A stretch of DNA of 23,477 nucleotides from a virus: IMG/VR virus record IMGVR_UViG_3300003410_000048, positions 1 to 23,477 of that record; one strand, 5' to 3'. The position numbers and the translations under genes are program-made. Within the stretch, counting starts at the first letter, position 1; every line of letters starts with the position of its first letter. A model generated the notes under the pieces. It was not told the DNA's origin. It was given only the letters and a program-made list of their open reading frames with translations, and ran no database searches. Shown in pieces: positions 1 through 23,312 of this stretch.

Positions 1-911
1 TGCATTTCCTCTTCGATCTTATTGACTTCTTCTTGTGCTTCGTTTAAAATACGAACACCGTCAAGTGTAACACCGCCAGGCATCTGCACACCTGCGAACT
101 TACTCAAGTTATTACCCCACTGCAATTTAATCAGTGCAGTAGCATACTTCTTGAGGAACATGTCATTGTACACTTGTGTAAATGTTGCAGGATCAAGGAT
201 TCGATATGCTTCAAAGATGAGATACTCATCGACTGCAATATCTACATTCCAATCCATATCAACGTATACACGATCAGACTTACGGTTGAAGCGAATGTTA
301 GGTGCAGTACCCAATTCCATCTCGATAAGAGATAGGTGACGCTTAACCATGTCGTAGTGAAGTACGGAAGTGGACGAAAGATCAAACAATTCGTTCAGAT
401 GCATTTGATATCGTACATCAAACATATCCATAGTAGACGAATTGGTGAAAGGGAAGACTCTTACAACACCAGTGATTGCATCATTAATTGTGACGTATCC
501 CAATTTGATGTCACCTTCCGCAACAGAGTTTACGACTGCGGCATGTGAACTTGCAACACCTTCTATTGTTTCACCATCAGAAAAATCCCCAACTTCATTT
601 CTAATGCGTAGGGTTGATGATGTAGGAAAGTCGATTACACGCGCCTTTGCACCACTGGTTTGACCGATAATAGTCTCACCTGCAATGAAAGATTCTGCGT
701 TTGTTGTAGTAAGTGTGATGGTGGTAGCGGTTACCTTGTGTTTAAGGTAAGTTCGCTCCACACCATCAAAGTGATATTCTTGAAAATATTGAATCGCTTC
801 ATCAACGCGATCTTCAACTTGATCATCCGATACGTTGATGTCAATGACGCCTTTTCCAAGGCGTCTTAGACAATATTCTTTTAAGTCTGCTCTAGATGTA
901 GGGTTTGCCAT
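1..911 (-). CDS. 13: Neck protein gp13 (partial at its C-terminus)
   Basis: The ATG at 911 opens a frame of 303 codons with no stop to the window edge. It begins MANPTSRADLKEYCLRRLGK and continues DDQVEDRVDEAIQYFQEYHF then DGVERTYLKHKV, the marine T4-like gp13 signature. Further matches are YQMHLNELFD, YDMVKRHLSLIEMEL, RVYVDMDWN, YNDMFLKKYATALIKLQWGN, KFAGVQMPGGVTLDG and a closing helix ending NKIEEEM. gp13 with gp14 forms the neck that closes the filled head and receives the tail. T4 gp13 is about 309 residues, so only a short tail is probably missing. Residues 65-128 look like an inserted module with two GETI-G units. The start is supported by AGGAG 8 nt upstream. Confidence 0.9.
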   Translation of the reverse strand, partial: MANPTSRADLKEYCLRRLGKGVIDINVSDDQVEDRVDEAIQYFQEYHFDGVERTYLKHKVTATTITLTTTNAESFIAGETIIGQTSGAKARVIDFPTSSTLRIRNEVGDFSDGETIEGVASSHAAVVNSVAEGDIKLGYVTINDAITGVVRVFPFTNSSTMDMFDVRYQMHLNELFDLSSTSVLHYDMVKRHLSLIEMELGTAPNIRFNRKSDRVYVDMDWNVDIAVDEYLIFEAYRILDPATFTQVYNDMFLKKYATALIKLQWGNNLSKFAGVQMPGGVTLDGVRILNEAQEEVNKIEEEM

Positions 912-918
912 TTAACCA

Positions 919-949
919 TCTCCTATTTGTTATTATTTATAATAGGAGA
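919..949 (-). promoter_or_regulatory. Hairpin enclosing a late promoter and sequestering the gp13 ribosome site
   Basis: On the minus strand a 9-bp perfect inverted repeat (TCTCCTATT at 949-941, AATAGGAGA at 927-919) has a 13-nt loop. The exact late octamer TATAAATA (941-934) spans the end of the 5' arm and the loop. The 3' arm contains AGGAG, the ribosome site 8 nt from the gp13 ATG. Read-through RNA would fold and hide that site, whereas RNA started at the late promoter would lack the 5' arm. Confidence 0.72.
934..941 (-). promoter_or_regulatory. T4-type late promoter before gene 13
   Basis: Exact TATAAATA on the minus strand, 22 nt before the gp13 ATG and inside the 919-949 hairpin. It would start the gp13 transcript near position 928, just ahead of the AGGAG site. 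Confidence 0.8.
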
Positions 950-950
950 A

Positions 951-1346
951 TTAGCGTAACAAACACTCCACTTGACCATGCTCTTGTGAGTTAGTGGTTA
1001 ATGCTACTGCTTTAACGTCTTGGAAAGATGCTCCATTGTTTGACTTCAGTTTTCCGAAAGATTCAGAAAGAACAAGTGCATCCCCCTTTCCAACGGAACC
1101 CCTAACATTAACAATACACCGTCCCATCAAAGCAACATATGGGTTTCCTGTTTTATCTAAAGCATAGATGACACCAATTACTCGGTTATCTCCAGTACCA
1201 TTAGTTACACGAATCTCATAGTTACCTGACTGAGCGAGAGAACATACAGTACCCACCTCAAGGAGATTGTTTGGGTCAACTGTAAATCTCTCAGCAAAGT
1301 CGGAGATTTGTCTTTCAAGAATTAGTCTACCATTTTTGATAGGCAT
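951..1346 (-). CDS. Beta-rich protein with a fibre-head-like GR(V)-V-G-V--GD motif (131 aa)
   Basis: The centre of the protein reads PYVALMGRCIVNVRGSVGKG followed by DALVLSESFGKLKS. The order ALMGR, V-V-G-V--GD-LV-S, GK--- is like a small beta domain found at the ends of phage fibres and similar trimeric proteins, where it usually reads ALSGRVPVKV-G-V--GD-LV. The rest is beta-rich (GNYEIRVTN, GVIYALDKTG). It lies directly before gp13, where T4 encodes the wac fibritin, but there is no coiled coil here, so it is not a fibritin homolog by sequence. A capsid or neck decoration role is possible. The ribosome site is AGGAG. The stop lies 2 nt before the hairpin that regulates gp13. Confidence 0.7.
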   Translation of the reverse strand: MPIKNGRLILERQISDFAERFTVDPNNLLEVGTVCSLAQSGNYEIRVTNGTGDNRVIGVIYALDKTGNPYVALMGRCIVNVRGSVGKGDALVLSESFGKLKSNNGASFQDVKAVALTTNSQEHGQVECLLR

Positions 1347-2611: not shown

Positions 2612-3136
2612 CTATGTCAAATTGTGATTGTCGCCAGCGATTTCTGTGATGGTCATAAACCCATCATAGCAATTTACGCTATAAGCACCTGTCACATAAA
2701 TCTCATTTGCAAATGTTTGATTATTGGTACTGCCAGGCGCATGAATATGGTTCATATAGACTCCAGATGCCATCATATTAGCATTCCATGCTTGTTGGAA
2801 ATCATGTTGATTGTGTCTACCATTACGAACCCTCTGGTTACCTTGATATGAATTTCGTCCACCCAAAGCGTTTTCATATGTATATTCGGTTTGACCATTA
2901 ACTTGAACTCTCAAGTGTGCAGTATGATACGAGGTATTAATTGCAGAACCCGTATACATTGAACCTGTAAATACATACTCCAAATGAGAATCTGCATACT
3001 CAGGTTGTAGGGATAATGATTGTCCCCACTGCGACCACGATGCTGAACCATGAGTCTTATCAGAGATATCCCTAGAAACATGTTGTACGATTTGGGAACC
3101 GAATAATACATGTTTAGTTACTTTTGTTAGTGCCAT
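2612..3136 (-). CDS. Tandem paralog 3 of a small virion protein family (174 aa)
   Basis: The start is placed at the ATG at 3136, giving MALTKVTKHV like the paralogs. An upstream in-frame TTG at 3148 would add only MEFR-, and it overlaps the GGAG sequence that serves as ribosome site for the internal ATG, so the longer start is unlikely. The product is about 79 percent identical to the preceding copy, with identical length, so this pair is the most recent duplication in the array. Key segments are GSQIVQHVSRDISDKTH, VNGQTEYTYENALGG, NHIHAPGSTN and CYDGFMTITEIAG. The gap to the next copy is 8 nt, and a single polycistronic message is likely. Confidence 0.78.
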   Translation of the reverse strand: MALTKVTKHVLFGSQIVQHVSRDISDKTHGSASWSQWGQSLSLQPEYADSHLEYVFTGSMYTGSAINTSYHTAHLRVQVNGQTEYTYENALGGRNSYQGNQRVRNGRHNQHDFQQAWNANMMASGVYMNHIHAPGSTNNQTFANEIYVTGAYSVNCYDGFMTITEIAGDNHNLT

Positions 3137-3148
3137 TCTAAACTCCAA

Positions 3149-3673
3149 TTATGTTAATGAATGGTGGTTACCAGAAATTTCAGTTATGGTCATAAACCCA
3201 TCATAGCAACTTACGCTATAAGCACCTGTCACAAAAACCTGATTCTGAAAAATCTGCTCATTCGTATTCCCAGGCGCATGAATGTGATTCATATAAACCC
3301 CAGATGCCATCATATACGCATTCCAATCTTGTTGGAAGTCATGTTGATTGTTTCTAGCATTACGAACCCTCTGAGTGCCTTGATATGAGTTTTGTCCACC
3401 AAGTGCATTTTCATATGTATATTCAGTTTGACCGTTAACTATTAATCTTAAATGTGCAGTATTATATGATGTATTTATTGACGTTCCTGTATACATCGAA
3501 CCTGTAAATACATATTCCAAATGTGAGTCTTTATATTCAGGACTAATAGAGACACTCTCCCCCCAATTAGACCAATTTGATGCACTATGGGTTTTATCAG
3601 ATATATCCCTAGAAACATGTTGTACAATCTGTGATCCAAAAATAACATGCTTAGTTATCTTTTTTAATCCCAT
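3149..3673 (-). CDS. Tandem paralog 2 of a small virion protein family (174 aa)
   Basis: Same family as the flanking genes. It is the close relative of the next copy: equal length, and about 137 of 174 residues identical by hand count, with differences concentrated at the head, in the 30-45 region and around the H-PG-TN loop. Conserved features include GSQIVQHVSRDISDKTH, VNGQTEYTYENALGG, NHIHAPGNTN and CYDGFMTITEIS. The His-rich NQHDFQQ and NHIHAPG segments could bind metal, but this is speculative. The start is MGLKKITKHV with a weak GGGA ribosome site; a start-stop triplet pair (ATG TAA) sits just upstream and overlaps the real start by one base, which could modulate initiation. Confidence 0.77.
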   Translation of the reverse strand: MGLKKITKHVIFGSQIVQHVSRDISDKTHSASNWSNWGESVSISPEYKDSHLEYVFTGSMYTGTSINTSYNTAHLRLIVNGQTEYTYENALGGQNSYQGTQRVRNARNNQHDFQQDWNAYMMASGVYMNHIHAPGNTNEQIFQNQVFVTGAYSVSCYDGFMTITEISGNHHSLT

Positions 3674-3700: not shown

Positions 3701-4201
3701 TTAAATAATGTGAGTACCGCCAGTACCAGTAGTAACCCCACTCGAAATTTCTTTTGCCATAAGAAAACCATCAGTACAGTAGTATGTACCACCAGTATTA
3801 TTATTCCTAGTTATCCGAACAGTAATTGCTTGGTTATTTGTAGTGCCAGGCAAATGGCGGTGGAACATACCAATCGAGTTACCAAAAGTTGATGTTTGGT
3901 TATACGATTCGTTGTGTCGTCCTGCAGTCATTGCATTCGCAAGTGTATATTCATTTTGACCATTTACATAAAGATATACTGTAGTTAATGCAGTATCACT
4001 ATTGTGCGCTGTACCACAGCGAATGGTTCCACTAAAATGCAATTCTAATATCGAATCTGCATATTGAGGAGTGAGGTCTAATGTTTGACCCCACTGCGTT
4101 ACACCAGTTGCGTTTGCACTCATATCGTTTTGATCTTGATACTTCATCTGAACGATAAAAGAACCATGTAAAACGTGCTTTGTGAGTTTAGTCAATGCCA
4201 T
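3701..4201 (-). CDS. Tandem paralog 1 of a small virion protein family (166 aa)
   Basis: First in transcription order of four related genes. It shares the head (M-LTK-TKHV--GS--VQ), an SP/TP-(Q/E)Y-DS--E strand, VNGQNEY, an H-PG-TNNQ motif and DGF--(A)KEISSG with its neighbours. Relative to the two central copies the middle is shortened and the C-terminus carries an extra GTGGTHII tail. I recall such MALTKVTKHV proteins as multi-copy structural genes in marine T4-like phages, without known function. Small size, beta-rich sequence and location among fibre genes suggest surface or fibre-tip proteins (inference). The ribosome site AAGGG lies about 10 nt from the ATG. The stop precedes a 27-nt gap to the next copy. 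Confidence 0.75.
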   Translation of the reverse strand: MALTKLTKHVLHGSFIVQMKYQDQNDMSANATGVTQWGQTLDLTPQYADSILELHFSGTIRCGTAHNSDTALTTVYLYVNGQNEYTLANAMTAGRHNESYNQTSTFGNSIGMFHRHLPGTTNNQAITVRITRNNNTGGTYYCTDGFLMAKEISSGVTTGTGGTHII

Positions 4202-22897: not shown

Positions 22898-23299
22898 TTA
22901 TCTTAACCTTTGTAGATAGGTTGTGAAAACCTGTTCTTCGTTAGTACTAACAACATAAAAATAAATCTGTATCGTATATTCGTTTGAATCTGGATTCGGA
23001 TTAACGAGTACACGAGAAAGTTCTACCCTTGGTTCATGATTCACAACCGTATTACGAATCGACTGCTCTAACATTCTACGCAGTTGCGGAGAATCATTCT
23101 CAAACAACAACGCATGAATGTTCCCACCAATCTCTGGGTGAAATGGTCTTTCGTAAGTAGATGTCAAAATCAAATGACGTAATGAAGACTTAATTGCTTC
23201 CACATCTAGTTTACGCCCAACATCATTCGTATTCGGATTGCGTGTGAATAGCATATCCAAATCAGAAAAGTTGGTTGTTTGTCTTGTAACTTTCGCCAT
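22898..23299 (-). CDS. 25: Baseplate wedge subunit gp25 (GPW/gp25 family)
   Basis: This 133-residue protein has the length and signature of T4 gp25, the lysozyme-like sheath-anchoring wedge subunit at the inner baseplate. Visible family features are the early FSDLDMLF and NPNTNDVGRK segments, the ERPFHPEIGG loop with downstream ALLFEN, and the HEPRV motif around residues 88-92 (the family's EPR motif). The ATG at 23299 is supported because the conserved region begins about ten residues later. No good Shine-Dalgarno sequence lies within 5-12 nt; the nearest purine run (AGGA) is about 20 nt upstream, beyond the late-promoter octamer. Gene 6 follows after a 1-nt gap. In T4, gene 25 is not next to gene 6; the 25-6-7-8 order is characteristic of marine T4-like phages (recalled knowledge). 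Confidence 0.93.
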   Translation of the reverse strand: MAKVTRQTTNFSDLDMLFTRNPNTNDVGRKLDVEAIKSSLRHLILTSTYERPFHPEIGGNIHALLFENDSPQLRRMLEQSIRNTVVNHEPRVELSRVLVNPNPDSNEYTIQIYFYVVSTNEEQVFTTYLQRLR

Positions 23300-23304
23300 A
23301 TGAT

Positions 23305-23312
23305 TATTTATA
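23305..23312 (-). promoter_or_regulatory. T4-type late promoter octamer before gene 25
   Basis: The minus strand reads TATAAATA, an exact match to the T4 late promoter -10 element. It lies four bases after the PAAR-gene stop codon and only five bases before the gene 25 ATG. Initiation a few bases downstream would give an mRNA with almost no leader. Confidence 0.6.

What the first reader, a model, noticed from the sequence alone, without database searches (positions are those of the whole stretch)
911..953. Late promoter nested in a hairpin that would silence gp13 translation from read-through RNA
A 9-bp perfect inverted repeat starts right after the upstream stop codon. Its 3' arm is the gp13 ribosome site and its loop region holds TATAAATA. 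RNA initiated upstream would mask AGGAG; RNA initiated at the late octamer would lack the 5' arm and be translated. T4 gene e is the established case of this logic. Seeing it at the neck-protein gene of a marine relative suggests gp13 dosage is timed separately from the fibre genes before it.
Basis: partly seen in the sequence, partly recalled or inferred. Interest (0 to 1): 0.62.

Follow-up and report, generated by a model that had tools for sequence, protein, structure and literature searches.

The report
Late promoter inside gp13 ribosome-site hairpin
In this T4-like marine phage the start signal for making neck-protein RNA sits inside an RNA hairpin that would hide the ribosome site on any longer RNA, a trick known from a few T4 genes but here found repeatedly, with different stem sequences, at the same neck gene in many uncultured phages.

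Summary
Confirmed. On the minus strand, a perfect 9-bp inverted repeat (949-941 / 927-919) starts one base after the upstream stop. Its loop holds the T4 late octamer TATAAATA (941-934) and its 3' arm is the gp13 Shine-Dalgarno (SD). Folding predicts that opening the SD costs 11-12 kcal/mol in read-through RNA but 2.3 in RNA starting at the predicted +1 (928).

The close relatives keep the octamer nested in the hairpin, with different, compensated arms (TCTCCAAGGTAT/ATACCTTGGAGA; TCTCCGAAATAT/ATATTTCGGAGA). Among 249 octamer-gene pairs in 12 contigs, gp13 has the strongest nested stem in 11 contigs. Of 64 gp13 protein clusters, 15 hold stems of 9 bp or more, in several separate places of the gp13 tree. 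The same scan on T4 ranks the proven cases I-TevI and e first.

The mechanism is the established T4 gene e type. New are its recurrence at an essential structural gene and that in most relatives the stem also ends in T5-7, like an intrinsic terminator. The window's copy has no T-run, so SD masking is the better reading here. An insulator role at the edge of a variable gene island is plausible. No transcript data exist.

The parts
941..949 (-). 5' arm of the hairpin, TCTCCTATT; present only in RNA that starts upstream
   Evidence: Perfect 9-bp inverted repeat with 919-927
934..941 (-). T4-type late promoter octamer TATAAATA, in the loop
   Evidence: Exact octamer; all five copies in the window are on the coding strand just before genes; kept in relatives
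928..928 (-). Predicted late transcript start (+1), octamer start + 13
   Evidence: T4 geometry; the octamer-to-ATG distance spikes at exactly 13 in related contigs; not mapped by experiment
919..927 (-). 3' arm AATAGGAGA, containing the gp13 Shine-Dalgarno AGGAG
   Evidence: AGGAG starts 13 nt before the ATG
3..911 (-). gp13, T4-like neck protein (head-tail adaptor Ad2); cut by the window edge
   Evidence: PHROG 211, E 1.4e-40
951..1346 (-). Upstream cistron, 131 aa, function unknown; its stop codon (951-953) lies one base before the 5' arm
   Evidence: ORF list; no Pfam or PHROG match; relatives in the same place

Best explanation
A gene e-type lock on gp13. RNA that reaches gp13 from upstream cistrons folds the 9-bp stem and hides AGGAG, so it makes little gp13. 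Once late transcription starts at the octamer inside the loop (predicted +1 at 928), the new RNA lacks the 5' arm, carries a free ribosome site and is translated. gp13, and probably gp14 behind it, therefore answer to their own late promoter and not to whatever is transcribed upstream. In most relatives the same stem also ends in a T-run, so it probably terminates upstream transcription as well; the window's copy lacks the run and should act by masking alone. Shown by computation: the sequence, the predicted folds, conservation through compensated arms, specificity for gp13. Inferred: the transcripts, the translational effect, and the insulating purpose at the edge of a variable gene island.
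For: dG to open the SD 11.3-12.1 kcal/mol in read-through RNA vs 2.3 in late RNA. Sister phages keep octamer plus pairing with different arms. Strongest nested stem of the genome in 11 of 12 contigs. One random member per cluster: 11 of 36 have 12 bp or more vs mean 0.45, max 2, in shuffles. Compensatory changes at pairs 1-3. Several separate places on the gp13 tree. The same scan on T4 ranks I-TevI and e first. Literature: the e hairpin reduces lysozyme synthesis 100-fold (PMC3014915).
Against: No transcript or translation data. The stem is A/T-rich and only 9 bp in the window. The upstream stop is one base before the 5' arm, so a terminating ribosome could open it; in T4 gene e the 5' arm also lies at the end of the upstream gene nudE. 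Many gp13 clusters lack the hairpin. T-runs in relatives favour termination as well.
Confidence: 0.72

Rival explanations
1. Mainly a transcription terminator: the stem stops upstream RNA polymerase just before gp13, and the promoter inside it restarts transcription. The masked SD is a by-product of using one arm twice.
For: T-run of 5-7 within 11 nt of the ATG in 46 of 73 hairpin-bearing gp13 leaders vs 4 of 155 without the hairpin and 4 of 237 other late genes.
Against: The window has UGGUUAAAUG after the stem, no T-run; L194 and L306 also lack it and L442 and L094 have only T3, yet they keep the stem over the SD. The terminator scan lists neither the window's stem nor that of L003, though its loop limit of 8 would exclude them anyway.
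Confidence: 0.12
2. Translational coupling: a ribosome ending the upstream cistron opens the stem, so gp13 is translated from the long RNA only when the upstream gene is.
For: In the window the 5' arm begins one base after the upstream stop, within reach of a terminating ribosome.
Against: The distance is not conserved: 31 nt in the sister cluster represented by L083 and up to 25 nt in other clusters. It would not explain an octamer nested in the stem.
Confidence: 0.08
3. Another role of the stem in RNA, for example a processing site that separates the cistrons.
For: Stems of 14-22 bp in some relatives.
Against: Only 9 bp in the window; nothing specific supports it; no Rfam match.
Confidence: 0.05
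4. Chance: an SD and a pyrimidine-rich stretch that happen to pair.
For: Seven perfect repeats of 9 bp or more with short loops exist in the whole window, and 15 of 237 other late genes reach 9 bp.
Against: Compensated conservation in the sisters, top rank at gp13 in 11 of 12 contigs, and the shuffle and arm-swap tests.
Confidence: 0.03

Closest known systems
T4 gene e (lysozyme) late-promoter hairpin; also soc and 49 (PMC3014915)
   Same: Octamer within or beside the 5' part of a stem that hides the SD in longer RNA; RNA from the late promoter lacks the 5' arm.
   Different: There the longer transcripts are early ones and the gene is a lysis gene; here gp13 is a structural gene behind late-type genes, and most relatives add a T-run.
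T4 I-TevI, I-TevII, I-TevIII, segB and Aeh1 mobE hairpins (PMC2988022)
   Same: Late promoter placed so that late RNA cannot form the SD-hiding stem.
   Different: Mobile endonuclease genes, not an essential virion gene.
T4 gene 13 leader
   Same: A hairpin (GGGGCC/GGCCCC) also precedes the SD.
   Different: No late octamer in the gap, and the stem abuts the SD without pairing it.

Membership tests
T4 gene e-type late-promoter / RBS hairpin | Stem in the leader pairs the Shine-Dalgarno | tested here: met
   9-bp perfect stem over AGGAG; SD almost never unpaired in the longer RNA
T4 gene e-type late-promoter / RBS hairpin | T4 late octamer placed so that late RNA lacks the 5' arm | tested here: met
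   TATAAATA at 941-934, predicted +1 at 928, first base of the 3' arm 927
T4 gene e-type late-promoter / RBS hairpin | Pairing conserved in relatives | tested here: met
   Different, compensated arms in sister phages
T4 gene e-type late-promoter / RBS hairpin | Late 5' end mapped between the arms | not testable with these tools
   No RNA data; only the indirect spacing signal
T4 gene e-type late-promoter / RBS hairpin | Longer RNA is poorly translated | not testable with these tools
   Needs a reporter or ribosome profiling
Intrinsic transcription terminator | T-run directly after the stem | tested here: not met
   Window has UGGUUAAAUG; met in most relatives
Any Rfam 15 family | Covariance-model match | tested here: not met
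   No match up to E 0.5 in 13 relative loci or up to E 1 in the window

The most novel reading that the evidence does not exclude
In several lineages of uncultured T4-like phages gp13 carries a compact three-in-one insulator: an intrinsic terminator whose loop is a late promoter and whose 3' arm is the ribosome site. It recurs at the boundary between a variable gene island and the conserved neck operon, so neck-operon expression is independent of whatever genes enter the island.
Probability: 0.4. Interest if true: 0.7.

Novelty: new member of a known kind. Interest (0 to 1): 0.56.

Why it matters
The known late-promoter hairpins mostly guard genes that are harmful or mobile if made early (lysozyme, homing endonucleases). 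Finding the same device, by sequence, at an essential structural gene in several separate places of the gp13 tree suggests that T4-like phages also use it to set boundaries inside the late region, where variable host-recognition genes meet conserved head-tail genes. It is directly testable with a reporter and with 5'/3'-end RNA-seq, and the natural variants with different arms are ready-made controls.

Tried and rejected
Chance: disfavoured by shuffles, arm swaps and conservation. A first permutation over 92 octamer-gene pairs was inconclusive (8 observed, permuted mean 3.5, max 9); near-identical gp13 leaders were swapped among themselves there, so the one-per-cluster tests replaced it. Rfam: nothing. 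Plasmids: no near match. A cultured phage with a long nested gp13 stem: none found; the nearest isolate is Pelagibacter phage Mosig with a weak 8-bp stem; HTVC008M has CATAAATA and a weak A/T-rich stem that reaches its AUG. The group at 48% identity (L008-L055) has mostly a 4-bp GTCC/GGAC stem and was not counted. A clade with TATACATA in place of the octamer and a stem of about 10 bp (L365, L396; leaders printed, stem read by eye) was counted as lacking the hairpin, which is conservative. Papers: in the titles, abstract openings and passages read, none reports this hairpin at gp13; subscription papers are not covered.

Full report
WHAT IS THERE. The window is the whole held virus record of 23,477 bases, with baseplate, fibre-like and neck genes on the minus strand. 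The gene at 911-3 is gp13, the T4-like neck protein (PHROG 211, E 1.4e-40; 46% identical to the neck protein of Pelagibacter phage HTVC008M). Read from the upstream stop, the minus strand is TAA T TCTCCTATT ATAAATAATAACA AATAGGAGA TGGTTAA ATG. The arms are 9/9 complementary with a 13-nt loop. The late octamer TATAAATA occupies 941-934, and the SD AGGAG is in the 3' arm, 13 nt before the ATG. All five TATAAATA of the window lie on the coding strand in gaps before genes, as expected of real late promoters. Of the five, only this one is nested in a stem over the SD.

IS IT MORE THAN CHANCE? In 20,000 dinucleotide shuffles of the 42-nt gap, 38 held any perfect repeat of 9 bp or more. In 12 contigs (the window and 11 relatives), 249 late-octamer/gene pairs were scored for a stem joining DNA upstream of the predicted start to the SD region. 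gp13 had 9-20 bp in 11 of 12 contigs and 4 bp in one. It had the best score of its contig in those 11, and the ten best scores overall are all gp13. The other 237 genes had 0-11 bp, 15 of them reaching 9. The contigs are related, so these are not 12 independent trials.

The finding would have failed if relatives kept the octamer but lost the pairing. The closest relatives (gp13 68-70% identical) keep both, with different arms: TCTCCAAGGTAT...ATACCTTGGAGA, 12-14 bp. The next (53%) has TCTCCGAAATAT...ATATTTCGGAGA, 12 bp. Across 234 distinct gp13 leaders, 165 have NATAAATA at 10-80 nt, and stem lengths fall largely into two groups, a peak at 4-5 bp and a broad one at 12 bp and more. With one random member from each of the 36 protein clusters that have an octamer, 11 have 12 bp or more, against a mean of 0.45 (max 2) when only the 5' segment is shuffled; for 9 bp or more it is 14 against 3.5 (max 8), and against 2.9 (max 7) when 5' segments are swapped between clusters. 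Among 14 cluster representatives, the three pairs inside the SD core are all formed and each uses three pair types; these rows were chosen for having stems, so the shuffle test is the unbiased one. On a gp13 tree of 64 clusters, the 12 clusters in which at least half the members have the hairpin need 6 changes, at least 4 forced by well-supported branches. It was therefore gained or lost repeatedly; gains and losses cannot be told apart.

POSITIVE CONTROL. The same scan on phage T4 ranks 144431 minus (MKSGIYQIKNTLNN, which I recognise as I-TevI) and gene e (66997 minus, annotation) first and second of 32. Both are experimentally established (PMC3014915, PMC2988022). The wider contig scan also returns proteins that look by eye like GIY-YIG and HNH endonucleases, which fits that literature; no family search was run on them.

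HOW IT PROBABLY WORKS. With 60-150 nt of upstream RNA, opening the SD costs 11.3-12.1 kcal/mol; in RNA starting at 928 it costs 2.3 (37 C). At 20 C the values are 14.4-14.6 and 3.2. Shifting the start by 2 nt changes little. The +1 is set from T4 geometry (octamer start + 13, my own knowledge). Indirect support: in these 12 contigs the distance from octamer start to ATG spikes at exactly 13 (26 cases; 1 at 12 and 3 at 14), with 0-1 at 13 for five scrambled octamers, as expected if +1 lies there and some late mRNAs start on the AUG itself. Read-through RNA should then be poorly translated for gp13, and late RNA well translated. This last step is inference.

TERMINATOR QUESTION. In relatives, 46 of 73 hairpin-bearing gp13 leaders have a T-run of 5-7 within 11 nt of the ATG, against 4 of 155 gp13 leaders without the hairpin and 4 of 237 other late genes. 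Many therefore look like an intrinsic terminator whose loop is a promoter and whose 3' arm is an SD. The window copy (UGGUUAAAUG) lacks the run, as do L194 and L306, while L442 and L094 have only T3, yet all keep the stem over the SD. I take SD masking as the shared function and termination as an added one in many relatives. Neither is shown by experiment.

WHY AT gp13? Immediate downstream neighbours are homologous in all 1770 cluster pairs, immediate upstream neighbours in only 109. A published comparison of pelagimyophages places a hypervariable host-recognition island between VrlC and the neck gene gp14 (PMC7029224). gp13 thus stands at the border of variable and conserved genes, where an insulating lock makes sense. 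This is a hypothesis: hairpin clusters share some upstream neighbours (19 of 105 pairs), and clusters without the hairpin face the same variability.

COMPARISON AND NOVELTY. It works like T4 gene e and meets each defining feature that could be tested from sequence; mapped 5' ends and translation are untested. It is a new member of a known kind. New here are the gene (an essential structural one), the recurrence, and the frequent joining with a terminator-like T-run. In the passages I could read I found no report of it at gp13.

LIMITS. Long-stem forms were found only in uncultured contigs. Mosig (8 bp, weak) and HTVC008M are the nearest isolates.

Noticed in passing
window 23299-23312 minus (gp25) and 11 related contigs: The gap from late octamer start to the gene's ATG is exactly 13 nt in 26 cases (1 at 12, 3 at 14; five scrambled octamers give 0-1), so the predicted late mRNA starts on the AUG itself: a class of leaderless late mRNAs, gp25 among them in the window and in several relatives.
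   Followed up: partly
L365, L396, L362 (leaders printed): A gp13 clade where TATACATA stands in the place of the octamer; L365 and L396 have the arms GCTCCTGATGC / GCATCAGGAG around it. A variant late promoter in the same nested place?
   Followed up: no
L113, L115, L146 (loci): Small, hydrophobic-looking proteins of 89-106 aa also stand behind an octamer nested in a 12-bp TCTCC...GGAGA stem: possible lysis genes under the gene e logic; not searched for family.
   Followed up: no
window 2612-3673 minus: Two similar tandem ORFs (2612-3148 and 3149-3673; starts MALTKVTKHVLFGSQIVQ and MGLKKITKHVIFGSQIVQ), with more distant look-alikes at 2100-2603 and 3701-4201; three of the four were searched in PHROGs without a match.
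   Followed up: no
L247 (T4 93592-93624): T4 gene 13 itself has a strong GGGGCC/GGCCCC hairpin just before its SD and no late octamer in the gap.
   Followed up: no
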